Under the pieces are notes generated by a model. That model had not been told where the DNA came from. It did not search any database and saw nothing but the letters and a program-made list of their open reading frames with translations. From Dyella sp. EPa41 (GTDB lineage Bacteria; Pseudomonadota; Gammaproteobacteria; Xanthomonadales; Rhodanobacteraceae), in the NCBI RefSeq assembly GCF_016586165.1, contig NZ_BCPR01000040.1, positions 1-41,632 of the forward strand: a DNA stretch of 41,632 nt. The letters run 5' to 3'. Shown piece after piece: positions 8,006-22,998 of the stretch. Numbering within the stretch: position 1 is the first letter of the stretch; each line of letters opens with the position of its first letter. Position numbers and translations under genes: made by a program.

Positions 8006-9967
8006 TCAGCCGTTGCTGGGCGCGCCGGCCTCCATTTGCCAGTACACGGCGTAGCGTTCGCCGTGCACCTGGTTGAGCGGGACGACGGCAAGCTTGCCGT
8101 CCCTTGTCTGCGCTTCGAAGCGCAGATCCCGCGCGGATGCCACGCGCAACCAGGACACGTCATCGGCTTGCTTGTCGGCGACGCGCGGTGCGGGCCATGG
8201 CCTGGGTTCGGGCCTGGGTGCCGCGTCGTAGCCGCAGTACTGCATGTCGTGGGTCAGGCCCTGGTCGCCCAGGCATGCCGCCAACACCAGTGGTCCATAA
8301 AGCACCGCCTGCAGGCCGTCGTCGCCGGGCAACGCCATGCGCGTCACCCGCATGGGGAGATCCAGCTCGAGGTGATCGCCGTCGTGCCACTCGCGCTTGA
8401 TCGTGAGGTAGCTGCCGGGCGAGGCGAACACATCCAGCGCCTGGCCGTTGAGCCGCACGCGTGCGCCAGGCCCGATCCATGAAGGCACGCGCAGGTTCAA
8501 CGCGAAGGTGGATGGCGCACTGAGTGAGAGCTGGAAACGTGTCAGCGGTTCGCGGGGAAAAGCCGTCCCCTGGCGGAAACGCAGCTTCTGTTCCGGCCAA
8601 TCGAGTTCTGACGGAATGAACAGGTTGACGTAGAGGTCGTTGCCGTCGCGGAAGTAGATGCTGTCGTTGAAGCGGGCGAACTCTTCCGCACCACTGCCCG
8701 TGCAACACCAGAACGAATCGGTGGGCGTGTTGTAGAACTTCGCCGCGCCGGGCTGCAACGGGTAGTAGTACAACTTCATGCCGTCGCCGTCCTGCGTGCC
8801 CAGCCGCGCGTTGTAGAGCGTGCGCTCGTAGTAGTCGAACGCGCGCGGGTCACCGTTCCACGCGTACACGTGGCGCGTCAGCTTCATCAGGTTGTAGGCC
8901 ACGCAACACTCGGCGCTGTACAGGCCGAGCTGGCCCTTGAGATCGCCGGGCGCGGTGTTCCAGAACTCGTCGTTGCTCGAACCGCCGGTGGCGTAGGTGC
9001 GATTGCGCGTGACGGTTTCCCAGAAGAACTCGGCGATGCGCCGGCAGCGCGGCTCGCCGGTGAGCTCGTAGCGCCGGGCGGCGCCGATCACCTTGGGCAC
9101 CTGCGTGTTGCTGTGCAGGCCCTGCAGCTCATCGCGATGCGCCGCCAATGGATCGAACAGCGATGCCTGGTCGAAGCGGTGGGCCGCATCGAGATAGCGG
9201 CTGTTGCCGGTGATCGCATACAGCTCGACCATGGCGTCGTTCATCCCGCCGTACTCGGTCTTCAGGATGTGCGCCATCTCCGCATCGGAAAAGCCGTTGA
9301 GCCAGCGCACCGTCCAGTTGCCGATGCCGATCGCCACCTGCAACGCCTGCCTGTTGCCGGTGTGCTCGTACATGTCGAGCATGCCGGCGAGGATCTTGTG
9401 GATGGTGTAGAACGGCGCCCACACCTTCTGGCCGCTGCTCAGGCGGTCGAAGAAGCTTTCGGGGAAGGCGCTCAGATAGCCGTTGGGTTGCTGGCAGGCG
9501 GCGAGTGCCGCGACCAGCTCGTCACCGCGCTGCTTGAGGGTGTTGTCGCCCATCGTGGCATAAGCCAAGGCGGCAGCTGAGAGGTAGTGGCCGCCGCTGA
9601 AGTGGCCCCGCAGCTCGCAGTCGGGCTTCTCCCAGCCGCCCAGCGGCTGCGCACTGGAGGCGATGCCGGCCTGCACGCGGAAACCATGCGCCAGCCGATC
9701 CACCGGCAAGCTGTGCAGATAGCGCTGGTTGATCGCTGCGGCGCGCGAGAAATCGCTGTCCAGGAGACGAACCTGGCCAAGTGCAAAGGGCCGCATGCGA
9801 TACACGGGTTGTTCGCGCACGGCGTTGCCGCTCGTGGCGTCGGCGGGCGATGCGGCATCGGCGACATCGGGCGCCAGGCTGAAGGCGCGGGGCACGACCG
9901 CCAGCGACGCCAGCGCCGTGGCCGCTTGCTTGAGAAATCGCCTGCGATGATCACGATCCTGTTGCAT
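8006..9967 (-). CDS. GH127-family beta-L-arabinofuranosidase, Tat-exported
   Basis: Predicted glycoside hydrolase of family 127 (former DUF1680), 653 residues. It begins with a twin-arginine-type signal (RRRFLKQ at 8-14 and a hydrophobic stretch to about 30), so it probably acts in the periplasm or outside. The zinc/cysteine active site of the family is visible: Glu334 (NDEFW, likely acid/base), Glu353 and Cys355 in SAECC, and Cys421-Cys422 in FWCCTG, where one Cys is the nucleophile in characterised members. GH127 enzymes release L-arabinose from beta-L-arabinofuranosides such as those on hydroxyproline-rich glycoproteins. ATG 9967 has GGGGA seven bases upstream; the frame is open to 9997. 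It lies last in the co-directional series that includes GH27 and the hydroxyproline genes. Substrate is inferred from family. Confidence 0.85.
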   Translation of the reverse strand: MQQDRDHRRRFLKQAATALASLAVVPRAFSLAPDVADAASPADATSGNAVREQPVYRMRPFALGQVRLLDSDFSRAAAINQRYLHSLPVDRLAHGFRVQAGIASSAQPLGGWEKPDCELRGHFSGGHYLSAAALAYATMGDNTLKQRGDELVAALAACQQPNGYLSAFPESFFDRLSSGQKVWAPFYTIHKILAGMLDMYEHTGNRQALQVAIGIGNWTVRWLNGFSDAEMAHILKTEYGGMNDAMVELYAITGNSRYLDAAHRFDQASLFDPLAAHRDELQGLHSNTQVPKVIGAARRYELTGEPRCRRIAEFFWETVTRNRTYATGGSSNDEFWNTAPGDLKGQLGLYSAECCVAYNLMKLTRHVYAWNGDPRAFDYYERTLYNARLGTQDGDGMKLYYYPLQPGAAKFYNTPTDSFWCCTGSGAEEFARFNDSIYFRDGNDLYVNLFIPSELDWPEQKLRFRQGTAFPREPLTRFQLSLSAPSTFALNLRVPSWIGPGARVRLNGQALDVFASPGSYLTIKREWHDGDHLELDLPMRVTRMALPGDDGLQAVLYGPLVLAACLGDQGLTHDMQYCGYDAAPRPEPRPWPAPRVADKQADDVSWLRVASARDLRFEAQTRDGKLAVVPLNQVHGERYAVYWQMEAGAPSNG

Positions 9968-10039
9968 GACTCTCCCCGAGGCATGGCCTGACAGCATGGA
10001 ATGTCGACGTTTTTCGAGCGACGCTTGCGCAGGATTTCA

Positions 10040-10086
10040 TCGTGCCGTCACATGACCAGGCCGTCTTGTGCCATTTGACGGCACGA
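10040..10086. promoter_or_regulatory. Long inverted repeat upstream of GH127 (candidate operator)
   Basis: Two 15-base arms, TCGTGCCGTCACATG (10040-10054) and the reverse complement of TCGTGCCGTCAAATG (10072-10086), match at 14 of 15 positions with a 17-base spacer. The centre lies about 95 bases before the GH127 start. The spacing of just over three helical turns suits two regulator half-sites; a transcript stem-loop is the alternative. Confidence 0.45.
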
Positions 10087-10114
10087 CATGCGGAATCCCG
10101 CATAGTCGCAGGCG

Positions 10115-10132
10115 GCTCTCGTCCGCGAGAGC
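10115..10132 (-). terminator. Weak hairpin downstream of the GH27 gene
   Basis: Stem GCTCTCG / CGAGAGC with a four-base loop, about 27 bases after the GH27 stop. No T tract follows on the minus strand, so its role as a terminator is doubtful. Confidence 0.3.
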
Positions 10133-10158
10133 GACCCTGTCATGCGCGCGTTGATGCC

Positions 10159-11364
10159 TCAGCGCGGCGCATCCAGCCGGATCAACATCACGTCGTGGCG
10201 GGCCAGCGCAATGGCCTGCCGATCCGTAAGCGATACGGCCGCACCGCTCCACAGATCCTTGCCCTGCTGCGTGCCATGCAGGCCCAGCTTCGCCAGGTTC
10301 AGGCGGAAGGGATGGGTGTCGGCAAGGCGGGCGCTTCCCACGTTGAATATCGCAATCGCCAATGCACCGTGTTGCAGCGGACGCGTCCATACCTCCACTT
10401 CGCCCTCGGCGTAGGCACGCGTGGCCTGCTTGCCCAGCGGATCCTGGTCGATGGCGATGACGTCGCGGTTGGCCAGGATGTCCTTCACCTCGCCCGGCAT
10501 GTGGGCAAGGTCGTTGCCGGCGAGCAAGGGTGCCGCCAGCATCGCCCACCAACTGAAATGCGCGCGATTCTCCTCAGCGGTCAATTTGCCGTTGCCGACC
10601 TCGAGCATGTCCGGGTCGTTCCAGTGGCCGGGGCCGGCATGGCTGGCCAGACCCTCCTGCTGCGAGGCAATGGCATAGATGCGATCCCACTCGGGCGTGA
10701 TGTCGCCGGTGGTTCGCCAAAGGTTGCCGCCGACCTTGGCACCGGGTGCCCACTCCCAGACCGCGTCCCAACCGTACTGGCACAGCGAGTAAACGATGGG
10801 CCGGCCCGTCGCCGCCAGCGCGACATGCATGCGTTCGTAGGCATCGACCATCAGGCGCATCTGTTGCGCGGGATCGTCGGGCGCCTTGGCCTTCATCTGG
10901 TCCTCGATGAAGCTGCACAGGTCGTACTTCAGATAGTCCACGCCCCATGCGGCGTAGGTCTTCGCATCCTGTGCCTCGTGCCCCAGCGATCCGGTGAAGC
11001 CGGCACAGGTCTTCGGGCCGGGTGATGTATAGATGCCGAGCTTCAGGCCCTTGGAGTGGACGTAGTCGGCCAGCGCCTTCATGTCGGGAAAACGCGCATT
11101 CGGGTGGATCACGCCCTTGGCGTCACGCTGGCCCTGCCAACCGTCGTCTATGTTGACGTAGACGTAGCCGGCGTCGCGCATGCCGCTGCTGACCAGGGCA
11201 TCGGCCGCCGCGCGCACGTCCGCATCGGTGACTTTCTCGGCGAAGAAATTCCAGCTGTTCCAGCCCATCGGCGGCGTGGCCGCCACGGTGTCGGCGACTG
11301 CGCTACTGCAAGCCGAGCCCAGCACCATGGTCAACGCGAACAGAACACGATGGGACAATCGCAT
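10159..11364 (-). CDS. GH27-family alpha-galactosidase, exported
   Basis: 401-residue retaining alpha-galactosidase. Sec signal peptide with likely cleavage after SSAVA (about residue 25). Family marks: PPMGWNSWN at 31-39, nucleophile Asp148 in YLKYDLC, acid/base Asp221 in WRTTGDITPEW, and the GHWNDPDMLEVGNG block. A (beta/alpha)8 barrel followed by a short C-terminal beta domain is expected. GAGG lies six bases before the ATG. The permease stop is only 35 bases upstream, so permease and galactosidase are probably cotranscribed. Substrate could be galactomannan or raffinose sugars, but in this setting the Ser-linked alpha-galactose of plant extensins is an attractive possibility (inference). 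Family assignment is firm; natural substrate is not. Confidence 0.9.
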   Translation of the reverse strand: MRLSHRVLFALTMVLGSACSSAVADTVAATPPMGWNSWNFFAEKVTDADVRAAADALVSSGMRDAGYVYVNIDDGWQGQRDAKGVIHPNARFPDMKALADYVHSKGLKLGIYTSPGPKTCAGFTGSLGHEAQDAKTYAAWGVDYLKYDLCSFIEDQMKAKAPDDPAQQMRLMVDAYERMHVALAATGRPIVYSLCQYGWDAVWEWAPGAKVGGNLWRTTGDITPEWDRIYAIASQQEGLASHAGPGHWNDPDMLEVGNGKLTAEENRAHFSWWAMLAAPLLAGNDLAHMPGEVKDILANRDVIAIDQDPLGKQATRAYAEGEVEVWTRPLQHGALAIAIFNVGSARLADTHPFRLNLAKLGLHGTQQGKDLWSGAAVSLTDRQAIALARHDVMLIRLDAPR

Positions 11365-11399
11365 GGTTCACCTCGTTGTCGGGAGAGCGGAATGCAAGG

Positions 11400-12809
11400 T
11401 CAGGCCGGATTGGCGGCCACGCGACTATGGCGCCGGCCGTAACCCAGGTACAACACGCAGCCCAGCAACAGCCAGATGGCGAAGCGCACATAGGTGATGG
11501 CGGGCAGGCCCCAGATCAGCCAGCACGAGAACCCTACGCCAATGATAGGCACCAGCGGCACCAGCGGCGTGCGGAACGGACGATGCAGCCCCGGCTGGCG
11601 CCAGCGCAGCACGGCCACGGCGGCGCAGATCACGATGAAGGCACCGAGCACGCCGATGTTCACCAGCTTGGCGAGCTCGTCCAGGGGAAACAGGCCCGAC
11701 GCGACAGCGGTGACCGCGCCGAGCAGCAGGGTGGAGCGATGCGGCGTGCGCCAGCGCGGATGCACGGCGGCAAACCACGACGGCAACAGGCCGTCGCGGC
11801 CGAGGCTGAAGCCGATGCGCGCGCCCGCCATCAGGTTGGCGAAGATCACGCTGGTGATGCCGCATACCGACGCCAGCGAGATCACCACCATCGTCCACGG
11901 CATGCCGATGCGGATGAAGGCATTCGCCACCGGTGCTGCATTGTCCAGCGTGGTGTACGGCACGATGCCGGTGAGCACGAGGCAGATGGCGATATAGAGC
12001 ACCATGGCGATGCCGAGCGAGAGCAGCACGGCGCGCGGCAGGTCGCGCTGTGGATCGCGCGATTCCTCAGCCGCGGTGGTGAGCATGTCGTAGCCGAACA
12101 CGGCGAAGAACACCACGGCGGCGCCGGTGACGACCCCGTGCATGCCGAACGGCATGAAGGGATGCCAGCGCTCGGGCTTCACGTAGGCCGCGCCGGCGAC
12201 CACGATCAGCGCCGCGCCGGCGATCTTGATCGACACGATCAGCGTATTGAAACGCGCGCCCCATTCCATGCGCACGGCAAGCAGGGCGGTGATGACCACG
12301 GAGATCACGATGGCGGGCAGGTTCACCACGCGGCCTGGCGCGCTGCCCCAGGCACCTTGCGCCCATGCCGGCAACGGTATCCCGGCGGCATCCAGCAGCG
12401 CCTGCATGTACCCGGACCAGCCCACCGCGACGACGGCGGCGATCAGCGCGTATTCCAGCAGGAGATCCCAGCCGATGATCCAGCCGGCGAACTCGCCGAG
12501 CACGGCATAGCCGTAGGTGTAGGCGCTGCCCGAGACCGGAATGAGGCCGGCGAATTCGGCGTAGCACAGCGCCGCGGCGGCGCTGGCGATGCCCGCGATG
12601 ATGAAGGACACCAGCACGGCGGGACCCGCCTGCGTGGCCGCCACGGTACCGGTGAGCACGAAGATGCCGACGCCGATGATGCCGCCAAGGCCGATGGCCG
12701 TGAGTTGCCACAGGCCCAGCACGCGACGCAGGCCACTGCCGCCTCTCGCGGCCTCGCCCTGCAATGCCTCCACCGGCTTGCGCCGCAGCATGTCGTTGAT
12801 CAGGCCCAT
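11400..12809 (-). CDS. APC-superfamily amino-acid permease (cationic amino acid transporter type)
   Basis: 469-residue membrane protein with about 12 hydrophobic segments. The first membrane segment carries the APC substrate motif GLGGIIGVGIFVLTG (about 40-54), and EFAGLIPVSGSAYTY and FFAVFGYDMLTTAAEE are typical of the CAT/YfnA group. It likely imports an amino acid with protons. ATG 12809 has GGGGAG eight bases upstream. It sits between the DUF885 protein and the alpha-galactosidase, downstream of the hydroxyproline operon on the same strand, which makes proline or hydroxyproline uptake a testable guess. Sequence alone does not give the substrate. Confidence 0.88.
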   Translation of the reverse strand: MGLINDMLRRKPVEALQGEAARGGSGLRRVLGLWQLTAIGLGGIIGVGIFVLTGTVAATQAGPAVLVSFIIAGIASAAAALCYAEFAGLIPVSGSAYTYGYAVLGEFAGWIIGWDLLLEYALIAAVVAVGWSGYMQALLDAAGIPLPAWAQGAWGSAPGRVVNLPAIVISVVITALLAVRMEWGARFNTLIVSIKIAGAALIVVAGAAYVKPERWHPFMPFGMHGVVTGAAVVFFAVFGYDMLTTAAEESRDPQRDLPRAVLLSLGIAMVLYIAICLVLTGIVPYTTLDNAAPVANAFIRIGMPWTMVVISLASVCGITSVIFANLMAGARIGFSLGRDGLLPSWFAAVHPRWRTPHRSTLLLGAVTAVASGLFPLDELAKLVNIGVLGAFIVICAAVAVLRWRQPGLHRPFRTPLVPLVPIIGVGFSCWLIWGLPAITYVRFAIWLLLGCVLYLGYGRRHSRVAANPA

Positions 12810-12958
12810 CCGCTACTCCCCGTCTCGCGTGGTTTCGATGTGTTGGAACGTCCGTCCTGCTCCCGCTTCATTGCCGTCGCGGCCCATGGCCGGTTGGCGC
12901 TGCACGCGAGAGCAGGTCGGGTCTTCCCTGGCGCGTTGCTCCCTGACGTGTGCCGCGG

Positions 12959-14713
12959 CTACTTCGCGGCGTACGGCGACTTCCCGCCGTCCGCGATGAA
13001 CTTGTCCACCTCTTGCTGCAGCACCGGCAGCGGCACCGAGCCGAGCGACAACACGGTGTCGTGGAAGGCGCGCAAGTCGAAATGCTCGCCCAGCGCCTTC
13101 TCCGCCTTCGCGCGTGCATCGACGATGGCGAGTTCGCCCAGGTAGTACGACAAGGCCTGGCCGGGCCAGGCGATGTAGCGATCCACCTCGGTCTCGATCT
13201 CGTGTTCACTCAGCGCCGTGTTGTCGCGCATGAAGGCCTGCGCCTGTTCGCGCGTCCAGCCCTTGTGGTGGATGCCCGTGTCGACCACCAGGCGGCAGGC
13301 GCGCCACATCTGGTAGCTCAGGTAGCCGAAACGGTCGTACGGCGTGTCGTACATGTCCATCTCCACGCCCAGGCGCTCCGAATACAGCGCCCAGCCTTCG
13401 CCATAGGCGGAGATGTAGGTGTAGCGGCGAAAGTCCGGCAAGCCTTCATGCTCGGCCGCCAGCGGCATCTGGAAGGCATGGCCCGGCGCGGATTCATGCA
13501 GGGTGAGCGCCGTCAGCGAATACAGCGGCCGCGAGGGCAGGTCATAGGTATTGACCAGGTAGACGCCCGGGCCGCCGCGGCCACCGGTGTAGAACGGCGC
13601 AAGATCGGCCGGCACCGGTTCGATCGCGAAGCGCTGCCGCGGCAGTCGGCCAATGTAGTTGCCCACCTTGCCGTCGACGCGCTTGGCGATCCATGCGGCG
13701 TCCTTCAGCAGTTCCTCCGGCGTCTTGGGATAGAACTTCGGGTCGGTGCGCAGGTAATGCAGGAACTCCGGGAAGCTGCCCCTGAAGCCACTGTCGCGGA
13801 TGGTGTCGTCCATCTCCTTGCGGATACGCGCCACTTCCTTCAGGCCGAGCTCGTGGATCGCGTCGGGCGCCATGTCGAGCGTGGTGAACTCGCGGATCTG
13901 CGACTGGTAGAACGCCTTGCCGTCCGGCATCGATTCGGCGGCGAGCGTGGTGCGCGCCTGCTTCATGTAGGTGTTGCGCATGAAGTCGAGCAGCTTCGCG
14001 TAAGCGGGAATCACCGAGCGCTGGATCGCTTCGCGTCCATCCGCGCGCAGCTGCGCTTGCACATCGGCGGGAATCGTCGCCGGCATCTTGCGCAATGGCG
14101 TATAGAACAGGTTGGCGTCGCCTTTGGCATTCACCACGTCGGCAATCGACTGGTCGCGTCCCCCCAGCGTCACCCGCGGCACGCTGAAGCCGCGCGCGAG
14201 GCCGGCCTGCATGTTGGCCGTCTGTTCGTCGAAGTAGCGCGGTATATCTTGCAGCTGGCGGATGTAGTGGCGATAGTCCTCGGCGGTGCGCAGCGTGCGG
14301 CGCGCGGTGAAGCCGAGGTTGGTCCAGAACGCGGTGTCGCTGTTGAACGGCATCTCCCAGGCATGGAAGTGCTGGTCCGCGAGCAGGACCTGGATCTGGT
14401 TGCGATAGACCGCGTAGTTGACCGGATCGTCGCCCTTCAGCCGGGCCGGCGAAATGGCGTCGAGCTGCTTGAGCACGTCGGCCCAATAGGTCTCGCGCGT
14501 TGCCTGGGTGGCGGCGTCGACCTTGGGCAGATGGTCGGCGATCTTGCTGGCGTTGTTGTCCTCGTCATCCGCACCCTTGAACTGCGCTTGCCGCCACGCC
14601 CATTCCTTGGTGTAGATCGCATGGAAGCGGGCGGCCGCATCGTCGTCCGCGCGCGTCGGCAACGAAGCGCCGAGGCAGAGCGTGCCGGCAAGGGCGAGGA
14701 TGAAAGGTTTCAT
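12959..14713 (-). CDS. DUF885-family exported zinc-peptidase-like protein
   Basis: 584 residues with a Sec signal peptide (cleavage likely after TRA, about residue 22), so it acts in the periplasm or outside. DUF885 proteins carry an HExxPGH motif, here HESAPGH with His406, Glu407 and His412, and a downstream Glu in GEGWALYSE (Glu439) that would complete a zinc site. The family is regarded as metallopeptidase-like, but few members have been characterised. ATG 14713 follows an AAGGA-type site. It lies 121 bases after the M24 peptidase of the hydroxyproline operon, separated by a REP-like element, and may process peptides for that pathway (inference). Confidence 0.82.
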   Translation of the reverse strand: MKPFILALAGTLCLGASLPTRADDDAAARFHAIYTKEWAWRQAQFKGADDEDNNASKIADHLPKVDAATQATRETYWADVLKQLDAISPARLKGDDPVNYAVYRNQIQVLLADQHFHAWEMPFNSDTAFWTNLGFTARRTLRTAEDYRHYIRQLQDIPRYFDEQTANMQAGLARGFSVPRVTLGGRDQSIADVVNAKGDANLFYTPLRKMPATIPADVQAQLRADGREAIQRSVIPAYAKLLDFMRNTYMKQARTTLAAESMPDGKAFYQSQIREFTTLDMAPDAIHELGLKEVARIRKEMDDTIRDSGFRGSFPEFLHYLRTDPKFYPKTPEELLKDAAWIAKRVDGKVGNYIGRLPRQRFAIEPVPADLAPFYTGGRGGPGVYLVNTYDLPSRPLYSLTALTLHESAPGHAFQMPLAAEHEGLPDFRRYTYISAYGEGWALYSERLGVEMDMYDTPYDRFGYLSYQMWRACRLVVDTGIHHKGWTREQAQAFMRDNTALSEHEIETEVDRYIAWPGQALSYYLGELAIVDARAKAEKALGEHFDLRAFHDTVLSLGSVPLPVLQQEVDKFIADGGKSPYAAK

Positions 14714-14795
14714 GTCGCTGTCCTTCGGAAGGCTTTTTGCAGGGGCGCAGCCAGCGCGCGATCGCCGGGTTCCGGCGTTGCCGCTTCGTAGGGTT

Positions 14796-14820
14796 TTCGC
14801 GCACTGGGTGCGCTCCTACA
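14796..14820 (-). repeat. REP-like element, copy 3
   Basis: Minus-strand copy with core GCGCAC-CCA-GTGCGC, 15 bases after the stop of the M24 peptidase that ends the hydroxyproline operon. It may stabilise the operon transcript or mark its end. Confidence 0.85.
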
Positions 14821-14834
14821 GGTGGAGGTCGCCA

Positions 14835-16043
14835 TCACGCGAACGGCTGGTCGATCGCGGGCGACGGCGGCGTAAACCAGGCCGCGCCCTCCGCCGTGAC
14901 GTAGAAGTGGTCTTCCAGCCGCACGCCGAAACGGTCGGGCACCACGATCATCGGTTCGTTGCTGGCGCACATGCCGGGCTCCAGCAGCGTCTGGTTGCCA
15001 CGGACGAGGTAAGGCGTCTCATGGATGTTCATGCCGCAGCCGTGACCCGTGCGATGGGGGATGCCGGGCAGGCGGTAGCCGGGGCCGAGGCCGGCTTTCT
15101 CCACGACCTTTCGCGCCGCTTCGTCCACCGCTTCACAGGTCACGCCTGGACGCACCGCATCGAATGCGGCTTGCTGCGCCGCCTGCTCCAGCTCCCAGAT
15201 GCGCACGTGATCCGCGCCCGGTTGTCCGAAGATGTACGTGCGCGTGATGTCGGAGTGATAGCCCTGCACGGTGCAGCCGGTGTCGATCAGTACCAGTTCG
15301 CCCGATTGCAGGTATTGTTCGCCAGGCACGCCATGCGGATACGCCGTTGCCTGCCCGAACTGCACGATGCAAAAGGTGGAACCGTTGTCCGCGCCCATCG
15401 CACGATGGGCCTCATCGATGAAGCGCACCAGTTCGCCGCGGCTGATGCCTTCGCGCATGAGCCCGGCGGCGAGGCGATGCACCTGCAAGGTCATGGCGGT
15501 GGCCTGCTTCATCAGCGCAAGCTCGTGGGGCGACTTGCGGATACGGCAACCGTCGATGATGGGGGTCGCTTCCGCCAGCGGCTTGCCGCCCAGCGTGGCG
15601 CGTAGCCGTTCGGCGACCAGGTAGGGCGCGGCCGGGTCGAGTGCGAGGCTGCCGGCGCCGCGTTCGCGCAATGCGTCGGCCACCAGCAGTTGCGGATCTT
15701 CGTGCTCCTCCCACAGGCGCACCTCGGCTGGGATCAGCAGCACGGCTTCCAGCGACCCCACTTCGAACGCGGGGCATATCACGATGGGAGCGCCGCGCTG
15801 CGTCAGCAGCAAGCCGACCAGGCGTTCGCTCGCACCCCACGGTATGCCGCTGAAATAGCGCAGCGAGGTGCCGGCGGTGACCAGCAGCGCATCCATGCCT
15901 TGCTCACGCATCAGGCGACGCGCCTGATCGAGGCGCTGCTGGTACTCATCCGCGCCGATGGCCGCTGCCGGCGTGGGCCACGGTGCAAGCGAAGCCCGCG
16001 CCGTGGCAAGGTCGACGCCGCCGATCTGGCTGGCTGTGGTCAT
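14835..16043 (-). CDS. M24-family metallopeptidase (Xaa-Pro dipeptidase/aminopeptidase type)
   Basis: 402 residues without a signal peptide, so cytoplasmic. An N-terminal creatinase-like domain precedes a pita-bread catalytic domain. Metal ligands are visible as two Asp (LIDTG and YHSDITRTY), His (GHGCGMNIHE), Glu (NEPMIV) and Glu (RLEDHFYVT). M24B enzymes cut Xaa-Pro bonds. The ATG at 16043 overlaps the stop of the upstream dehydrogenase as ATGA, with GGAG eight bases before it, so it belongs to the hydroxyproline operon. The likely job is freeing hydroxyproline or proline from imported Xaa-Hyp/Xaa-Pro peptides (inference). Exact cleavage preference cannot be read from sequence. Confidence 0.9.
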   Translation of the reverse strand: MTTASQIGGVDLATARASLAPWPTPAAAIGADEYQQRLDQARRLMREQGMDALLVTAGTSLRYFSGIPWGASERLVGLLLTQRGAPIVICPAFEVGSLEAVLLIPAEVRLWEEHEDPQLLVADALRERGAGSLALDPAAPYLVAERLRATLGGKPLAEATPIIDGCRIRKSPHELALMKQATAMTLQVHRLAAGLMREGISRGELVRFIDEAHRAMGADNGSTFCIVQFGQATAYPHGVPGEQYLQSGELVLIDTGCTVQGYHSDITRTYIFGQPGADHVRIWELEQAAQQAAFDAVRPGVTCEAVDEAARKVVEKAGLGPGYRLPGIPHRTGHGCGMNIHETPYLVRGNQTLLEPGMCASNEPMIVVPDRFGVRLEDHFYVTAEGAAWFTPPSPAIDQPFA

Positions 16044-17629
16044 GCGTGGACTCCAAGGTCGTCGACGCACCACACGCCATCGATGCAACGCGCGACGCCG
16101 CCCGGGTTGTGATCGCGCAGTTCCGGCGGCAACTGGTGCTCGGGCACGTTGTCGTAGCAGTGCAGGGCGGTGAAGCGCGTGATCGCCGCGGGCATGCCCA
16201 CGGCGGTGAAGCCGGGGTGGCCGGTGCTCGGATACGGGCCGCCATGGTTCATGGCCGGGCTCACCGCGACGCCGGTAGGCATGCGGTTGCCGATCAAGCG
16301 GCCAACGCGCGGACGCAGGGCATGCGCCACCTTTGCCCAGGCGTCGTCGTCGCTGCCGTCGTTGGCGGTGTAGAGCGTGCCGGTGAGGTTGCCCTCGAAC
16401 GCCGATGCCACCTGGGCCATCTGCTCGACACCCTTCACGCGCACCAGCAGGCTCACGGGGCCAAAGGCCTCGGTCTGCAATGCCTTCGAATCACGCAGGA
16501 AGCGTTCCGCGTCGACGCTCAGCAGGGTGGGCGCATAGCGGTAACCGGGCGAACCAGCCTGGCCGCCGGCCAGCTCTTCCGCGCCCGCCTTGCGCAGCGT
16601 GGCGACGCTGCCCTGCAGGTGATCGAGCACGCCGCGCGAGAACAGCACGGCGGGTGCGGCGCCTGCGAAATGCCTTGCTGCTTCCGCCACGAATGCGTCG
16701 CCGGCTTTGCTCTGCGGCACGATCACGACGCCGGGGTTGGTGCAGAACTGGCCGCTGCCCATGGTGCACGACGCGAAGAATTCCTGGGCCAGCGCCGTGC
16801 CGCGTTCGGCCAGCGCGCCCGGCAGCAGGAACACGGGATTGACGCTGGAAAGCTCGACGTAGGCCGGTACGCCGGCGGCATCCGCCGCGGCTTTCAAGGC
16901 CAGGCCGCCGGCGCGGCTGCCGGTGAAGCCGATGGCGCCGAGACGTGCATCGCCCGCGACCTTCGTGCCGATGGCGTTGTCGAAGTGGTAGAGCATCTGC
17001 ACGGCCGCGGGCGGCAAACCGGCCTGCTTCAGTGCCGCGAAGGCCAGTCGCGCGAGGCGTTCGCTGGTGGCCGGGTGCGAGGGATGGGCCTTGGCGATCA
17101 CCGGATTGCGCGCGGCGATGGCGGAGGCGAAATCGCTGCCCGCGATCGCGTTGAACGCGAACGGGAAGTTGTTGGGGCCGAACACCAGCACCGGCTTGTT
17201 CAGCGGGGCGCGATGCGCGCGCAGGTTCGCCGCGGTATCGATTACCGGCTGCGTCCAAGCGAGGCCGCGCACCGCCTTGGCCGCGAGGCGCAGCTGGTTG
17301 GTGGTGCGTGGCAGCTCCACCGCGGAAAGGCGCGGCTGCCTCGGCAGGGCGGTTTCCGCGTTGGCCAGCTCCACCAGCATCTCGGCGTCCGCCTCGATGC
17401 CTGCGGCATAGGCCTCGAGAAACGCCGCGATGCTTTCCGGCGGCGTGGCGGCGAGTTCGTCTGCTACCGCGCAGGCGGCGGCGAGCGCCGCCTCGACGTC
17501 GGCCTCTCCGCAGATCGGATAGCTCGGACCGATCGCTTCGCCCGTGGTGGGATTCTCCGCGCGGAACTCGCCCAGCAGCTGGCGCGCCGCACGCCATTCG
17601 CCATCGATCAACAGGGGTTGTACGGCCAT
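16040..17629 (-). CDS. lhpG: Alpha-ketoglutarate semialdehyde (2,5-dioxovalerate) dehydrogenase
   Basis: 529-residue aldehyde dehydrogenase that would oxidise alpha-ketoglutarate semialdehyde to 2-oxoglutarate, the last step of hydroxyproline breakdown. Catalytic Cys296 lies in GSGQFCTNPG, general base Glu259 in VELSSVNP, and the Asn of GPNNFPF (about 153-154) fits the oxyanion site. The GQFCTNPG form and length are typical of NADP-preferring semialdehyde dehydrogenases of this subgroup. Its start is one base after the stop of the deaminase gene and its end overlaps the M24 start by four bases, so translation is coupled. The gene context makes a general sugar-acid role (arabinose or glucarate pathways) less likely, though the same enzyme serves those routes. 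Confidence 0.9.
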   Translation of the reverse strand: MAVQPLLIDGEWRAARQLLGEFRAENPTTGEAIGPSYPICGEADVEAALAAACAVADELAATPPESIAAFLEAYAAGIEADAEMLVELANAETALPRQPRLSAVELPRTTNQLRLAAKAVRGLAWTQPVIDTAANLRAHRAPLNKPVLVFGPNNFPFAFNAIAGSDFASAIAARNPVIAKAHPSHPATSERLARLAFAALKQAGLPPAAVQMLYHFDNAIGTKVAGDARLGAIGFTGSRAGGLALKAAADAAGVPAYVELSSVNPVFLLPGALAERGTALAQEFFASCTMGSGQFCTNPGVVIVPQSKAGDAFVAEAARHFAGAAPAVLFSRGVLDHLQGSVATLRKAGAEELAGGQAGSPGYRYAPTLLSVDAERFLRDSKALQTEAFGPVSLLVRVKGVEQMAQVASAFEGNLTGTLYTANDGSDDDAWAKVAHALRPRVGRLIGNRMPTGVAVSPAMNHGGPYPSTGHPGFTAVGMPAAITRFTALHCYDNVPEHQLPPELRDHNPGGVARCIDGVWCVDDLGVHA

Positions 17630-17630
17630 G

Positions 17631-18536
17631 TCAGATCACCGGTGCGTGGGCGATGGCATGATCGATCACGCGAAGCGCGGCTTCACGCTCGGCACCGTCC
17701 ATCGCCAGACGCGGTGCGCGTACGCGTTCGCTGCCCATGCCCACCTTTTCCTGCACCAGCTTGATGAGCTGCACGAACTTGGGCACGGTATCCAGGCGCA
17801 GCAGCGGCAGGAACCAAGCGTACAACTCGGCGGCTGCATCGGCACCGCCGTCGCGTGCCAGCTCGAACAGCTTCACGGATTCCTTCGGATAGGCATTCAC
17901 GAGGCCCGCGATCCAGCCACGCGCGCCCATCGCCACGCCTTCGACGATGGCGTCGTCCATGCCGACCAGCAGTTCCAGGCGATGGCCCAGCAGCGAGCGC
18001 AACGCCGCGAAGCGGCGCACATCGCCGGAAGACTCCTTCACCGCCTGCACGTTCGGGAACTCATGCGCGAGCTCGGCGATCTGCTCCGGCGAGAAGTCGG
18101 TCTTGTAGGCGATCGGGTTGTTGTAGAGCATGCACGGCAGGTCGGTCGCCGCGATCACCGCGCGCAGGTGCGCGCCCATCTCGCGCCAGTCGGTGGAGTA
18201 CACGTAGGGCGGCAGCACCATCAGGCCGGAGGCGCCAAGTGCCTTTGCTTCGCGCGCCAGGCGCACGGCTTCGTCGGTGGAGAGCGCGGCGATGCCGGGA
18301 ATCACCGGCGCACGGCCTTCCAGCGCCTTTACCAGCGTGCGGATGATGGCGAGCTTTTCGTCGAAGGTGAGCGTGGCCGCTTCGCCCAGCGAGCCGAGCG
18401 GGACGATGCCCTTGCAGCCGTCATCGATCAGCCTGCGCGCATGCTTGGCGAGGAAGTCGTGATCGACCTGGCCGTCGGCGGTGAACGGCGTGGTGATGGC
18501 GGGAATGACCCCGCGCCAGATGGATGCGTTGCTCAT
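17631..18536 (-). CDS. lhpC: 1-pyrroline-4-hydroxy-2-carboxylate deaminase (DapA superfamily)
   Basis: 301-residue (beta/alpha)8 aldolase-family enzyme. Schiff-base Lys167 lies in QAVKESSGD and the catalytic Tyr138 in MLYNNP, as in dihydrodipicolinate synthases. In hydroxyproline clusters this paralogue deaminates 1-pyrroline-4-hydroxy-2-carboxylate to alpha-ketoglutarate semialdehyde. I favour that over lysine biosynthesis because it is packed between the dehydrogenase subunits (two-base gap upstream) and the semialdehyde dehydrogenase (one-base gap downstream). KDG dehydratase or N-acetylneuraminate lyase roles are not supported by the neighbours. Confidence 0.9.
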   Translation of the reverse strand: MSNASIWRGVIPAITTPFTADGQVDHDFLAKHARRLIDDGCKGIVPLGSLGEAATLTFDEKLAIIRTLVKALEGRAPVIPGIAALSTDEAVRLAREAKALGASGLMVLPPYVYSTDWREMGAHLRAVIAATDLPCMLYNNPIAYKTDFSPEQIAELAHEFPNVQAVKESSGDVRRFAALRSLLGHRLELLVGMDDAIVEGVAMGARGWIAGLVNAYPKESVKLFELARDGGADAAAELYAWFLPLLRLDTVPKFVQLIKLVQEKVGMGSERVRAPRLAMDGAEREAALRVIDHAIAHAPVI

Positions 18537-18538
18537 GA

Positions 18539-19825
18539 TCAGCTACCTCGGTATGCGTCGTCAGAAGGAAGGGTGGTAAGCCCGGCCAGCGTGGCCAGAC
18601 GGGCGGGGAAGATGGGAGGGCGCGCGCCATCGCGCGGGAAGCGCCCGAGTTCGGCCAGCGCCGTGCCGCAGATGCGTCCCTGGCAGGCGCCCATGCCGCA
18701 GCGCGTGGCGAGCTTGGCGGCGCGCGCGTTGGTGAAGCCGCCGAGTTCACCCAGCGTGACGTCTTCGCAGCGGCAGATCAGCGTGCTGTCTTCTGCCAGT
18801 GCGTGCAGGCGTGGATCGAGTGCGAAGTGCCGTGACAGCAACGCACCGAAGCGCCGCTCGCGATCGCGCTGCGGCAACAACGCATGCGCCGCCACGCTGT
18901 GTCCGGTGGCGACATGGCCCGCCATGGCGCCTTCGAGCCGCGCCACCGCCAGCCCGCCGATGCCACCGGCTTCGCCCGCGGCGTACACGCCGCCCACGCT
19001 GGTGCGCAGCAGCCTGTCCACGCTGACGTGGGGATGCGGGCCGAGATAGTCCATCGCGCAGCCCAGCAACTGGGCCAGCTCGGTATTGGGCACCAGGCCG
19101 TAACCCACCGCGAGCAGATCGCAGTCGAGCGCCTGCGTTCCCGTCGGTGTCTCGATATCCACGCGTTGCACGCCATCGCCGCCGTGCGCACGACGCACGA
19201 AGGAACCGAGCCGGTAAGGCACGCCGGCCAGGCGAAGACGCAGTCCGATCGCCTGCACGGCGCGCGCGGGCCAGTGGCGAAGCTGCCTGGCGAACGCGTG
19301 CACGACGGCCGCGGGCGCCTGTTCGTAGATGCCGAGCACGCGCGCACCGTGCTTGCGCAAGGTATCGGCCGCGGCGAGCAGCAAGGGGCCGCTGCCGGCG
19401 ATCACCACGCGCTTGCCGGCGACGGGCCAGCCCTGCTTGGCGAGCGCCTGCAGACCTCCGGCGCCCGTGACGCCGGGCAAGGTCCAGCCGGAGAAGGGCA
19501 GCAGCAGTTCGCGTGCACCCGTGGCGAGAATCAGCGAGCCGTAGGAGATGAGCCGGCCGCCCTGAGGCGTTTCCACGCGCAGCCCGGACGACTCGACGGC
19601 CACCACGCTGTGGCTGGCCAGCACGTCCACGTCACGCAGTTTGCCGAAGGCTTCGCGTGCGGCACGCGGTGCTTCGCGGCGCACGTCGTGGCGCCACACC
19701 TGTCCGCCAGGGCGTGGCTGCGCGTCGATCAGGCCCACGCGCGCGCCGTGTGCCGCGGCGGTCTGGGCCGCCGCGAGGCCCGCGGGGCCCGCGCCTGCCA
19801 CCAACACGTCGTAACGGTCAGGCAT
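18539..19825 (-). CDS. D-hydroxyproline dehydrogenase, NAD(P)/FAD-type subunit with 2Fe-2S site
   Basis: 428 residues. An N-terminal dinucleotide-binding motif G11-A-G13-P-A-G16, a second Rossmann motif AGSGPLL in the middle, and a C-terminal BFD-like iron-sulfur domain with Cys351, Cys353, Cys376 and Cys381 (CRC...TRCGMGAC). This matches the large subunit of heteromeric D-hydroxyproline dehydrogenase and of opine/octopine oxidases. It would pass electrons from the substrate-binding flavin subunit to the respiratory chain. Its ATG overlaps the ferredoxin-like gene stop by eight bases. The substrate is assigned from the operon: the epimerase, deaminase and semialdehyde dehydrogenase are all present. 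Confidence 0.87.
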   Translation of the reverse strand: MPDRYDVLVAGAGPAGLAAAQTAAAHGARVGLIDAQPRPGGQVWRHDVRREAPRAAREAFGKLRDVDVLASHSVVAVESSGLRVETPQGGRLISYGSLILATGARELLLPFSGWTLPGVTGAGGLQALAKQGWPVAGKRVVIAGSGPLLLAAADTLRKHGARVLGIYEQAPAAVVHAFARQLRHWPARAVQAIGLRLRLAGVPYRLGSFVRRAHGGDGVQRVDIETPTGTQALDCDLLAVGYGLVPNTELAQLLGCAMDYLGPHPHVSVDRLLRTSVGGVYAAGEAGGIGGLAVARLEGAMAGHVATGHSVAAHALLPQRDRERRFGALLSRHFALDPRLHALAEDSTLICRCEDVTLGELGGFTNARAAKLATRCGMGACQGRICGTALAELGRFPRDGARPPIFPARLATLAGLTTLPSDDAYRGS

Positions 19826-20063
19826 CGGTCGTCACCTGCATGCCTTCCGTCACGGCCGTCATGCACGCGCGCACGTGGGCGACACCATCCACCTGCACAC
19901 GGCATTCGAAGCACACGCCCATGCCGCACAGCGGTGCGCGCCGGGTATCACTCACCGAGCGGCGGAATTGCATCGTCACCTGCGCTACGGCCGCCGCCAC
20001 GCTGGCGCCTGCGGGCACTTCCACCGGCAAGCCGTTCACGCTGAGCTTGACCTGCGCGCTCAT
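19818..20063 (-). CDS. Small 2Fe-2S ferredoxin-like subunit of D-hydroxyproline dehydrogenase
   Basis: 81-residue protein with a plant-ferredoxin-type cluster motif: Cys46, Cys51, Cys54 and Cys67 (PLCGMGVCFEC...RAC). It lacks the rest of a redox enzyme and is the third subunit of heteromeric amine dehydrogenases of this type. The reading frame extends far upstream, but the true start is the ATG at 20063, which overlaps the preceding stop as ATGA; translation above that point only mirrors the neighbouring gene. It sits exactly between the two flavin subunits. Confidence 0.88.
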   Translation of the reverse strand: MSAQVKLSVNGLPVEVPAGASVAAAVAQVTMQFRRSVSDTRRAPLCGMGVCFECRVQVDGVAHVRACMTAVTEGMQVTTDA

Positions 20064-21172
20064 GCGGCCATCCTCCGCGGCGAATAGGGCGCCGGGTCGA
20101 TGGCGGGCTGGCGCCCCTGGACCAGGTCGATCATCAGTTTCGCGCTGCCCAGCGCGGTGGTGACGCCGAGGCCTTCGTGACCGGCCGCCACCCATTGGTC
20201 CGTCGCGCCGGGCACGGCCCCGAGATATGGACGTCCATCCGGCGTGGTCGGCCGGAAGCCGGTCCAGATGCGCACCGCTTGCAGTTCGCGCAGCCTGGGC
20301 ACGAAGGCAAAGCTGCGCTCGAGCATGCGTTGCACCATCGACGGCGATACGGCAGCGTCGGTCGCGCTGAATTCGCGGGAGGAGCCGATCAGGATCTGTC
20401 CGGTCGGCCGCGGTTGTACGTTGAAGGCGACGCTGCTGTCGGCATCGCCGTGGGCGCTGTCCGCATAACCGAGTTCCAGCAGCTGGTGACGCACCAGCCC
20501 GGGATAGCGATCGGTGATGACAAGATGGCCCTTGCGCCCGCGCATCGGCAGCATCGGCAACAACGCGGGCAGGGCGCATCCGGTAGCGACCAGCACGGGG
20601 CCGGCGAGGCGCGTGCCGTCGTCGAGTTGCGCGCCGCTGCGTGGCAGTGCCAGCACGCGCCGTCCGGCGTACAGTCGCGCGCCGCGCGATTGCGCGCGCT
20701 TCACAAGGTGATCCGCCACGCGCGGCGGGTACACCACCGCTTCGCGCGGCACCAGCAGGCCGCCGGCCAATCCCGGCGCCAGCGCGGGCTCGAGTTCGTA
20801 CAACGCCCCGGCGTCGACCACGCGAGCCTCGACGCCTGCCGTATTCAGGCGCGCGACGCGCGTGCCCGCGGCTGCCAGTTCATCGTCGTTGCGGGCCACC
20901 CATAGCGTGCCGCAGCGGCTGAACTCCGCTACGCCCACATCGGCGAAGGCTTCCCAGTGGTGCAGCGAGTAGTTCGCCAGCGCGAGTTCGGCCGGGTCGT
21001 CGTCCATCGCCACCAGGTGGCCCATGGCGGCGGCCGTGGCGCCACCGCCGATCGGGCCGGGCTCCACGATGGCGACGCGCATGCCTCGGGCGCTGGCTTC
21101 ATCGGCACAACTGGCGCCGATGATGCCGGCGCCTATGACGATCAGGTCGAAGCTGGCGACGGTGCCGCTCAT
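20060..21172 (-). CDS. lhpB: D-hydroxyproline dehydrogenase, DadA-like flavin subunit
   Basis: 370-residue FAD-dependent amine oxidoreductase of the DAO/GlyDH fold: nucleotide-binding motif G14-A-G16-I-I-G19 at the N-terminus and the C-terminal [13 protein letters not shown] and [16 protein letters not shown] blocks that close the flavin site. It would oxidise cis-4-hydroxy-D-proline to 1-pyrroline-4-hydroxy-2-carboxylate. The start is the ATG at 21172, overlapping the epimerase stop as ATGA; the longer open frame to 21895 runs antiphase inside the epimerase and is rejected. D-proline or other D-amino acids are possible side substrates. Confidence 0.9.
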
Positions 21173-22110
21173 TCCGCTCCGCTGCCCCAGGTGAAGACAT
21201 CGGCCTCGTCGAACAACAGCGTGCTGCGCGCGACCACGAAGGCCGTGCCGGTGATCTGCGGACGCACGCCTTGGGTACCCGGTGTGTAGCGGCCCTCGAA
21301 CACGCTGCCGAGGATGCTTTCCTGCTGCCAGGCCTCGCCCGGCGCGAGCTTGCCGTCCGCGGCGAGGCACGCCAGTTTGGCGCTGGTGCCGGTGCCGCAC
21401 GGCGAACGGTCGTAGGCAAGACCGGGGCACAACACGAAGTTCCGGCCGTCCAGTCCAGCGACCGGAGACTTCGTGTTGACCTCGATGTGATCGATCTCGC
21501 CGCCATGGGCGCCGGTGATGTGGTTGGCTTCGAGCGCGCGGCGGATGGCTTCGGTGTAGGTGGTGAGTTCGCGCTGGTGACGGATCTCCAGCGGCAACGG
21601 CGTGTCCTTCGTGATGAAGAACCAGTTGCCGCCCCAGGCGATGTCTCCGGTGACCGTGCCGTAGCCGGGCACGTCGACGCTGACGTCCTTGGCGTGACGA
21701 TAGCTTTCGACGTTGTCGATGGTGACGCGGTCGTCTTCGTGCAGCGTCGCGCCGACGATGCCGACCGGTGTTTCTATCTTGTGCGTGCCCGGGCCGATGC
21801 GACCCATGTGCTGCAGTGTGCGTACGAGCCCGATGGTGCCGTGGCCGCACATGCCGAGATACGAGACGTTGTTGAAGTAGATCACTCCCGCGCACGCGTC
21901 GGCCGTCTGCGGCGGCAACAGCAGCGCGCCGACCACCGTGCTCGATCCGCGCGGTTCGCAGGCAATGGCGCTGCGCCAGCGGTCGAAGTCACGACGGAAG
22001 CGCTCGCGTTGCTCCATCAGCGTGCCACTGCCCAGGTCGGGAAAGCCGGCGATGACCACGCGGGTGGGTTCGCCGCCGGTGTGTGAGTCGATCACGTCTA
22101 TGGTATGCAT
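21169..22110 (-). CDS. lhpA: 4-hydroxyproline 2-epimerase (proline racemase family)
   Basis: 313-residue cofactor-independent epimerase turning trans-4-hydroxy-L-proline into cis-4-hydroxy-D-proline. Both catalytic cysteines are present, Cys88 in MCGHG and Cys238 in SPCGTG, which separates it from trans-3-hydroxyproline dehydratases (Cys/Thr pair). Asp234 precedes the second Cys as in active members. The ATG at 22110 has GAGGA eight bases upstream; the open frame to 22242 carries no family sequence. It is the first gene of the operon, and every following gene is coupled by overlap or a gap of at most two bases. Proline racemase is the alternative, but the complete hydroxyproline pathway downstream makes it unlikely. 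Confidence 0.92.
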
Positions 22111-22208
22111 GGTGCCTATCCTCGCGTCGCCTGCGCTTGGGCGTCTAGAAACGCTTGTCACCGGGGGATGCGGAAATCGGCACAATGAAAAACCTCGTGG
22201 CGGGGCTA

Positions 22209-22224
22209 TGCTGCAATTGCAGCA
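22209..22224. promoter_or_regulatory. Perfect 16-bp palindrome in the divergent hydroxyproline promoter region
   Basis: TGCTGCAATTGCAGCA lies 28 bases before the PAS-AraC gene and about 99 bases before the epimerase start. Perfect dyads of this length between a regulator and its divergent operon often bind a dimeric regulator. Which protein binds it is unknown; AraC proteins more often use direct repeats. Confidence 0.5.
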
Positions 22225-22251
22225 CGGGCTGGCGCATGGCAAGGAGTTTCG

Positions 22252-22998
22252 ATGGGGATGAAGATTTCGGCCGATGAACTTGAAGCGCTATTCGATGCGC
22301 TGCCCGACGTGGTGTTCTTCGTGAAGGACGGCAGCGGGCGGTACACGCACGCCAACCTCACGCTGGTCCGTCGGCTCGGTCTCAAGCATCGCAGTGACGT
22401 GATCGGGCGAGACGTGACCGAGCTGTTCCCGCAATCGTTGGGCGGTTCCTACGCTACGCAGGACCAGCGCGTGCTCGAAGGCGAGGTGATCGAAAACCAG
22501 CTCGAAGTGCACATGTTCCCCAACCGCGTGCCCGGCTGGTGCCTCACCTGCAAGCGGCCCCTGCGACAGCGAGGCGAGGTGCGGGGCATCGTCGGCATCT
22601 CGCGCGACCTAGGCAAGCCGGACGGCCGGCATCCCACCTATGTGCGGCTGCGTCGCGTGCTGGCCCATCTGCAGGAGCATTACGCCGAAGGCGTGCGCGT
22701 GGCGAGGCTCGCGGAGCTGGCGGATCTTTCGGTGGCGCAGCTCGAGCGGCATTTCCGCAAGGTATTCCAGCTCACGCCGCAACAGCTGCAGACCAAGTTG
22801 AGGATCGAAGAAGCCATGCGGCGCCTGCACGGCGAGGACAGCATCGCCGCGATCGGACTGGCTTGCGGCTTTGCCGACCAGAGCGCGTTCGCGCGCCAGT
22901 TCAAGGCGACGGTGGGGATGACGCCACGCGACTATCGAGCCTTGGTATCGGCGCCGGCCAACGGCCGCCGCGCACCGATGGCGGAGCGGGTGTCCTGA
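22252..22998 (+). CDS. PAS-AraC-family transcriptional regulator, likely of the hydroxyproline operon
   Basis: 248 residues. Residues about 8-120 form a PAS domain ([15 protein letters not shown]...GIVGISRDL), which binds a small ligand or cofactor in other proteins. Residues about 135-230 form the double helix-turn-helix AraC domain ([17 protein letters not shown] and [18 protein letters not shown], ending PRDYRA). AAGGAG lies six bases before the ATG at 22252. It is transcribed away from the epimerase, the usual position for the hydroxyproline activator (an AraC-type LhpR in Pseudomonas). The PAS sensory part is notable, and its ligand cannot be read from sequence. Confidence 0.88.

What the first reader, a model, noticed from the sequence alone, without database searches (positions are those of the whole stretch)
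8006..22998. Possible extensin/hydroxyproline-rich glycoprotein utilisation locus
Ten co-directional genes plus a divergent regulator combine a GH127 arabinofuranosidase, a GH27 alpha-galactosidase, an exported DUF885 peptidase-like protein, an APC permease, an M24 Xaa-Pro-type peptidase and a complete trans-4-hydroxyproline to 2-oxoglutarate pathway. Seen: gene order, strand and catalytic motifs. Known: extensins carry beta-L-arabinofuranosides on hydroxyproline and alpha-galactose on serine, and GH127 enzymes act on the former. Inferred: the cluster strips the sugars, digests the protein and burns the hydroxyproline. I do not know of a described system joining these parts in one locus. No arabinose catabolism genes are in the window.
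Basis: partly seen in the sequence, partly recalled or inferred. Interest (0 to 1): 0.85.

Follow-up and report, generated by a model that had tools for sequence, protein, structure and literature searches.

The report
Locus for eating plant wall hydroxyproline
A soil bacterium (Dyella) carries, in one gene row, exported enzymes likely to strip sugars from plant cell-wall glycoproteins together with the full pathway that burns the hydroxyproline this frees, and relatives in two phyla keep the central pair of functions side by side.

Summary
Window 8006-22998 carries 11 co-directional genes plus a divergent AraC/PAS regulator: the 4-hydroxyproline (Hyp) pathway, M24 and DUF885 peptidases, an APC permease, a GH27 and a GH127-like enzyme. 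The genus is Dyella. Main correction: the 'GH127' is nearer GH146 (339 bits to 5OPJ; best GH127-labelled structure 109); two published GH146 enzymes release arabinose from Ara-Hyp. Linkage is conserved: of 26 family genomes with this enzyme, 25 have the Hyp epimerase, 23 on the same contig within 7-14 kb, 22 on the same strand. Three of 22 Acidobacteria with a 46-55% relative also place it beside Hyp genes. In Rhodanobacter B05, without an epimerase match, the same enzyme sits in an L-arabinose cluster, so its contexts cover both halves of Ara-Hyp. The window genome has no araA and no L-arabinonate dehydratase, so Hyp is probably the prize. Most relatives add a TonB receptor, many an uncharacterised Tat-exported ~790-aa protein, possibly a six-hairpin glycosidase; the window lacks both. 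GH27 is linked in only 8 of 17 genomes, so the Ser-galactose step is weak. No activity was tested. Verdict: a credible hydroxyproline-glycoprotein utilisation locus; the combination was not found in the papers searched.

The parts
22252..22998 (+). Divergent regulator, PAS + AraC-type HTH (248 aa)
   Evidence: Pfam PAS_4 and HTH_18; a homologue stands divergent beside HypE in 35 of the 38 fetched loci with HypE
22111..22251 (.). Divergent intergenic region, presumed control region
   Evidence: Position only; the sigma-70 consensus scan found no site
21169..22110 (-). 4-hydroxyproline 2-epimerase (HypE)
   Evidence: NCBIfam NF010577 442.9 bits against cutoff 442; PDB 4JUU 496 bits, named as X. 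campestris 4HypE in PMC4113996 (passages); both Cys motifs MCGHG and PCGTG present (their role recalled)
20060..21172 (-). DAO-family FAD subunit, probable D-Hyp dehydrogenase
   Evidence: PF01266 216 bits; start
19818..20063 (-). Small 2Fe-2S subunit of the same dehydrogenase
   Evidence: PF13510; start
18539..19825 (-). FAD/NAD(P) oxidoreductase subunit of the same dehydrogenase
   Evidence: PF07992
17631..18536 (-). [quoted passage not shown]
   Evidence: PF00701, motif VKESSG; exact function inferred from place, no NCBIfam model over its cutoff
16040..17629 (-). Aldehyde dehydrogenase, probable 2-oxoglutarate semialdehyde dehydrogenase
   Evidence: PF00171; exact function inferred from place
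14835..16043 (-). M24 peptidase, Xaa-Pro type, no signal seen by eye (presumed cytoplasmic)
   Evidence: PF00557 and PF01321; start MTTAS
12959..14713 (-). DUF885 exported peptidase-like protein
   Evidence: PF05960 525 bits; HESAPGH motif; N-terminal signal by eye
11400..12809 (-). APC amino-acid permease
   Evidence: PF13520, PF00324; several relatives have a different APC protein (25-28% identity) at this place
10159..11364 (-). GH27 alpha-galactosidase, signal by eye
   Evidence: PF16499 + PF17801; best PDB 6f4c and 1uas alpha-galactosidases; linked in 8 of 17 genomes
8006..9997 (-). GH146 beta-L-arabinofuranosidase, Tat signal by eye (RRRFLK)
   Evidence: PF07944 + PF20736; 5opj 339 bits, best GH127-labelled 4qjy 109 bits, HypBA1 3wkw 42 bits; E363, C365, C431, C432 invariant in 11 orthologues
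7779..7799 (-). Terminator-like stem-loop after GH146, before the leucine dehydrogenase gene
   Evidence: 9-pair stem with T tail; 5 such sites found in the stretch against a mean of 8.3 in shuffles, so weak

Best explanation
A utilisation locus for plant hydroxyproline-rich glycoproteins in which the amino acid under the sugar, not the sugar, is the food. Tat-exported GH146 removes beta-L-arabinofuranose from hydroxyproline; exported GH27 may remove alpha-galactose from serine; exported DUF885 cuts the bared protein; the APC permease imports Hyp or short Hyp peptides; cytoplasmic M24 cuts the imino-peptide bond; HypE, the three-part D-Hyp dehydrogenase, HypD and the aldehyde dehydrogenase turn trans-4-Hyp into 2-oxoglutarate; the PAS/AraC protein switches the row on. 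In relatives a TonB receptor and a further probable six-hairpin glycosidase complete the set. Shown: gene order, families, conserved linkage. Inferred: substrate of each glycosidase and peptidase, import route, induction.
For: Families and order. Linkage in 23 of 26 genomes, 22 on the same strand. GH146 next to Hyp genes in 3 of 22 Acidobacteria, in two of them right after the HypD-type gene on the same strand. In 4 of the 5 fetched GH146-free Hyp loci where both flanks were found, permease and leucine dehydrogenase genes are only about 140-260 bp apart, so the glycosidases look like a removable block. The same GH146 (72%) sits with L-arabinonate dehydratase, AraD1 and a semialdehyde dehydrogenase in Rhodanobacter B05, where no HypE match was found, and 6 of 6 loci of the 47-51% branch (L103, L105, L107, L162-L164) sit with AraD1 and that dehydrogenase. 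0 of the 36 loci under 40% identity have Hyp or arabinose genes by the rule used. Window genome: no araA, only Edd and IlvD dehydratases. GH146 XCV2724 and BLLJ_0089 act on Ara-Hyp (PMC10850190 passages; PMC6085000 parts 1-4 of 5).
Against: No activity is known in this GH146 branch: the tree separates it from the XeHypBA1-type branch (identity 40%). 52 of 77 epimerase-positive family genomes lack this GH146. 19 of 22 Acidobacterial GH146 loci show no Hyp genes nearby (some are short contigs), and in 4 of the 7 with an epimerase the Hyp genes and GH146 are on different contigs. Two of the three named genomes of the arabinose-linked branch (L105, L107) have a complete Hyp row elsewhere without GH146. 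GH27 is not beside the row in 9 of 17 genomes. The window lacks the TonB receptor and the ~790-aa protein seen in relatives, and nothing recognised in the window trims Ara3/Ara4 chains. Of the Hyp-row proteins scanned with NCBIfam only HypE passed a cutoff; the DAO subunit was not scanned.
Confidence: 0.72

Rival explanations
1. Ordinary Hyp (and proline-peptide) catabolism operon, with glycosidases that serve pectic arabinan/galactan and lie next to it by inherited chromosomal order only.
For: Founding GH146 BT0349 acts on arabinan-derived oligosaccharides (PMC10850190 passages); in Acidobacteria a GH51-type C-terminal domain protein (L098) or a GH31 (L091) lies near GH146; GH27 is linked in only 8 of 17 genomes; the GH146-Hyp row is largely inherited within one family.
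Against: Separate junctions in Acidobacteria; the only 1 of 26 family genomes without an epimerase match has GH146 in an arabinose cluster instead; no arabinose route of the two kinds sought in the window genome.
Confidence: 0.18
2. The locus targets other Hyp-arabinosylated plant products (arabinosylated signalling peptides, solanaceous lectins, or arabinogalactan proteins) rather than extensin. (Overlaps with the best explanation; it changes only the polymer.)
For: GH146 Bll3HypBA1 acts on rice AGP (PMC10850190 passages); Hyp-arabinosides occur on lectins (PMC6085000); in G091 an enzyme with a weak GH42 match and DUF5597 joins the block.
Against: None specific: genomic context cannot tell these polymers apart.
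Confidence: 0.35
3. The sugar is the food and the Hyp pathway genes are there to remove a by-product.
For: Arabinose-cluster context of the same enzyme in Rhodanobacter B05 and of the 47-51% branch.
Against: Window genome has no araA and no L-arabinonate dehydratase.
Confidence: 0.08

Closest known systems
Xanthomonas euvesicatoria XeHypBA1/XeHypBA2/XeHypAA (PMC6085000, parts 1-4 of 5 read)
   Same: Exported GH146 that frees arabinose from Ara-Hyp; a prolyl-oligopeptidase-type gene beside xehypAA (reported broken there); host reported unable to use L-arabinose
   Different: Works with GH121 and GH43; no Hyp catabolism genes in the 6 loci of XeHypBA1-type genes examined (five of 20 kb, one of 12 kb); a different GH146 branch, 40% identical
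Bifidobacterium longum HypBA1/HypBA2/HypAA cluster (via PMC6085000 and PMC10850190; PMC7263609 seen only as search listing with start of abstract)
   Same: Removes beta-arabinosides from Hyp-rich glycoproteins
   Different: Described as an arabinose-harvesting system with an ABC importer; HypBA1 is GH127 and intracellular
Bacterial trans-4-hydroxyproline catabolism operon (HypE, D-Hyp dehydrogenase, HypD, semialdehyde dehydrogenase; PMC4113996 passages; Watanabe 2012 seen as title in its reference list)
   Same: Matching families for all steps, in one row
   Different: Joined here to exported glycosidases and an exported peptidase-like protein
Bacteroidetes polysaccharide utilisation loci (recalled)
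   Same: Glycosidases, TonB receptor (in relatives), importer, regulator in one locus
   Different: The catabolised product is the aglycone amino acid; window copy has no TonB receptor

Membership tests
GH146 | Sequence nearest to GH146 structures | tested here: met
   5opj 339 bits (GH146 BT0349 by recall), 8k7x/8k7y 206-207 bits (titled GH146); GH127-labelled 4qjy 109, 3wkw 42
GH146 | Zn site Glu-x-Cys and Cys-Cys | tested here: met
   E363, C365, C431, C432, invariant in 11 orthologues; ligand roles from PMC10850190
GH146 | beta-L-arabinofuranosidase activity | not testable with these tools
   needs assay
GH127 | Nearest to GH127 structures | tested here: not met
   best GH127-labelled chain 4qjy 109 bits, HypBA1 42, against 339 for 5opj
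GH27 alpha-galactosidase | Catalytic and C-terminal domains, catalytic Asp motif | tested here: met
   PF16499, PF17801; KYD motif (role recalled)
GH27 alpha-galactosidase | Acts on Ser-O-galactose | not testable with these tools
   linkage 8 of 17 only
trans-4-Hyp catabolism operon | 4HypE with two catalytic Cys | tested here: met
trans-4-Hyp catabolism operon | D-Hyp dehydrogenase, HypD, semialdehyde dehydrogenase genes | tested here: met
   matching families in one row; specific activities inferred, no NCBIfam equivalog over cutoff among those scanned
B. longum / Xanthomonas HypBA system | GH43 partner in the locus | tested here: not met
   no GH43 among the 30 window ORFs scanned (of 139 listed); 6 GH43 matches elsewhere in the genome
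B. longum / Xanthomonas HypBA system | GH121 partner | not tested
   no GH121 model or sequence was used
Polysaccharide utilisation locus | TonB receptor in the locus | tested here: not met
   no homologue of two relatives' receptors in the window; present after GH146 in 13 of 16 named relatives

The most novel reading that the evidence does not exclude
A class of utilisation locus in which exported glycosidases exist to uncover an amino acid: a block of TonB receptor, GH146 and a new glycoside hydrolase family (the ~790-aa Tat protein, with or without GH27) is joined to hydroxyproline catabolism in Proteobacteria, GH146 was joined to it separately in Acidobacteria, and this would explain why bacteria that cannot eat arabinose keep Ara-Hyp hydrolases.
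Probability: 0.45. Interest if true: 0.75.

Novelty: new variant of a known kind. Interest (0 to 1): 0.62.

Why it matters
Extensins and related hydroxyproline-rich glycoproteins are cross-linked structural proteins of plant cell walls, and how soil bacteria recycle them is, to my knowledge, little worked out. Published work left open why Xanthomonas keeps Ara-Hyp hydrolases although it cannot use arabinose and deletion mutants stay pathogenic (PMC6085000). A locus that joins such a hydrolase to hydroxyproline burning gives a direct, testable answer for related soil bacteria: the sugar is removed to reach the amino acid. It also points to an uncharacterised exported family as a candidate new glycoside hydrolase.

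Tried and rejected
Considered and rejected: filing the enzyme under GH127; chance adjacency; the NCBIfam names for the other Hyp enzymes, none of which passed its cutoff among those scanned.

Papers: searches listed none that I saw to join Hyp catabolism with these glycosidases (judged from listings, and from passages of those opened); subscription journals are mostly not held, so absence is not proof. PMC4454575 (passages) predicts extensin sugar use in Latescibacteria from a GH127 call, with arabinose as the product used.
Full report
Observation. Window 8006-22998 holds 11 genes on the minus strand and a divergent regulator on the plus strand. Pfam and NCBIfam give, in order of transcription: 4-hydroxyproline epimerase, a DAO-type FAD subunit, a 2Fe-2S subunit, an FAD/NAD oxidoreductase, a DHDPS-family enzyme, an aldehyde dehydrogenase, an M24 peptidase, DUF885, an APC permease, GH27 and a GH127/146-type enzyme (translations). 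The next gene, leucine dehydrogenase, starts at 7777 with a terminator-like stem between, though such sites were fewer than in shuffled sequence.

Which genome. The window genome (4.92 Mb, 165 contigs) is unnamed. So the genus is Dyella.

The arabinosidase is GH146. The best solved relatives are 5OPJ (339 bits; BT0349 by recall) and the B. longum pair 8K7X/8K7Y (206-207 bits, titled GH146); of GH127-labelled chains 4QJY gets 109 and HypBA1 42 bits. PMC10850190 (passages) names BT0349 as the founding GH146 and gives the B. longum zinc ligands; the matching Glu363, Cys365, Cys431 and Cys432 are invariant in 11 orthologues. The same paper reports that two GH146 enzymes, XCV2724 of Xanthomonas and BLLJ_0089 of B. 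longum, act on Araf-beta1-Hyp. A twin-arginine motif precedes the domain (by eye).

Linkage within the family. The enzyme is found in 8 of 20 genus genomes, 32 of 233 family genomes at E <= 1e-40 and 81 of 398 order genomes at E <= 1e-30. In 26 of the 233 it is at least 60% identical; 77 of the 233 carry the Hyp epimerase. Of the 26, 25 have the epimerase; 23 have both on one contig 7-14 kb apart, 22 on the same strand. Of the three others, G016 and G189 are split over contigs (G016's GH146 contig begins inside the Hyp row; one of G189's two GH146 contigs carries the ~790-aa gene and part of an APC permease) and G161 has no epimerase match. Of the 207 other genomes, 52 have the epimerase. Fifteen GH146-free Hyp loci were fetched (L058-L071, L073); in the 5 where permease and leucine dehydrogenase were both found, the two are about 140-260 bp apart in 4 (L058-L061) and 3.2 kb apart in L066. 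The glycosidases thus look like a removable block.

Linkage outside the family. Among the 80 named loci, 22 are Acidobacteria with 46-55% GH146. Three have Hyp genes beside it: L102, L152 and L096; in the last two GH146 follows the HypD-type gene directly on the same strand. Seven of these 22 genomes have an epimerase of 55% identity or more; in four (G506, G512, G514, G518) it lies on another contig than GH146, and in G513 (L096) the epimerase is on another contig while GH146's own 4.6-kb contig carries the FAD-subunit and HypD-type genes. L096 and L102 fall in different branches of the tree; L152 was too short to be placed. Of the 36 loci under 40% identity none shows Hyp or arabinose-pathway genes under the rule used, with flanks often cut short; two of 12 distant whole-genome loci (L168, L169) do show arabinose genes.

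The other half of the substrate. In Rhodanobacter sp. B05 (L050, L088), with no epimerase match, the same GH146 (72%) lies with a dehydratase that passes the cutoff of a sugar-acid dehydratase subfamily (NF004784, 939 against 539) and nearly that of L-arabinonate dehydratase (858 against 882), an AraD1 protein (513 against 340) and a 2-oxoglutarate-semialdehyde dehydrogenase-like enzyme (480 against 770). Reading NF004784 ('dihydroxy-acid dehydratase' in the library) as sugar-acid dehydratases is recalled. B05's nearest tree neighbour, L049, is in a Hyp row. All 6 loci of the 47-51% branch (Pseudoxanthomonas L103, Luteimonas L105, Xanthomonas L107, unnamed L162-L164) have AraD1 and that dehydrogenase; two of the three named ones, L105 and L107, have a Hyp row elsewhere without GH146. 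So one enzyme group is wired to the arabinose half in some genomes and to the Hyp half in others. Both paths are known to meet at 2-oxoglutarate semialdehyde (recalled).

Is arabinose eaten? The window genome has no match to AraA_N (5 of 14 control genomes ring) and only two ILVD/EDD proteins, which pass the cutoffs for Edd and IlvD, not for L-arabinonate dehydratase. Other arabinose routes were not tested and the genome is a draft. PMC6085000 (parts 1-4 of 5 read) reports that X. euvesicatoria cannot use L-arabinose and asks why it keeps such enzymes.

What relatives add. A TonB-dependent receptor gene follows GH146 in 13 of 16 named Rhodanobacteraceae loci (L074-L088, L104); it is absent from L075, L087, L088 and from the window. 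A Tat-type exported protein of about 790 residues, without a Pfam match over cutoff in 11 homologues scanned, occurs in 18 of 233 genomes; in 15 it lies beside GH146, in G085 and G086 beside the permease of the Hyp row, and G113 is too fragmented to tell. One Acidobacterium (L101, 54%) has it near GH146, on the other strand. The window genome has none. A low-confidence model (pLDDT 50) matches glycoside hydrolases and phosphorylases of, as I recall, the six-hairpin fold. It is a candidate new glycosidase family.

GH27. Seventeen family genomes have a GH27 of 60% identity or more; in 8 it lies in this block (G000, G001, G006, G008, G019, G172, G196, G091), in 9 not beside it as far as contigs show. 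The galactose-on-serine role is therefore a guess.

Tree. 94 GH146 rows; the window falls in a 45-row group (SH-aLRT 99) of Rhodanobacteraceae, Acidobacteria and the 47-51% branch, apart from the branch holding the ~791-aa XeHypBA1-like proteins of Xanthomonas-type genomes (L156-L161, with an S9 peptidase gene nearby in 6 of 6). Their equation with XeHypBA1 rests on length and neighbours, not on the record itself.

Mechanism. Export of GH146 (Tat), GH27 and DUF885 (signals by eye), import by APC, M24 cleavage inside, Hyp to 2-oxoglutarate, control by the PAS/AraC protein. Family assignments and linkage are shown; substrates, transport and control are inferred.

Verdict. A hydroxyproline-glycoprotein utilisation locus is the best reading (0.72). 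It joins two known kinds of system in a way that the paper searches made here did not find in print.

Noticed in passing
L079:7363-9732 and homologues (e.g. L042:14111-16483, L101:3278-5716): ~790-aa Tat-exported family with no Pfam match over cutoff, in 17 of 18 genomes beside Hyp-row genes or GH146; candidate new six-hairpin glycosidase.
   Followed up: partly
L064 about 2.6 kb and L065: Genomes G086 and G085 keep the ~790-aa gene and a TonB receptor by the Hyp row but lack the window-type GH146; L064 shows a short 53% remnant.
   Followed up: partly
L057 (G091): The glycosidase block is a separate, opposite-strand row: GH27, ~790-aa protein, GH146, TonB receptor, and an enzyme with DUF5597 and a weak GH42 match.
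   Followed up: partly
L055 (G013): GH146 and HypE both match in two pieces in the same genome, perhaps decay or assembly errors.
   Followed up: no
window 25-2931: Subtilisin-like autotransporter with PATR repeat.
   Followed up: no
window 25834-29301: Fused B12-binding, MeaB-type GTPase and mutase protein, IcmF-like by recall; its homologue lies near the Hyp row in L034, L035, L036, L038, L049 and L072.
   Followed up: no
G000:C28:14464-15348 (L002, L173): A second, remote PF07944 protein in the same genome, 54.6 bits.
   Followed up: no
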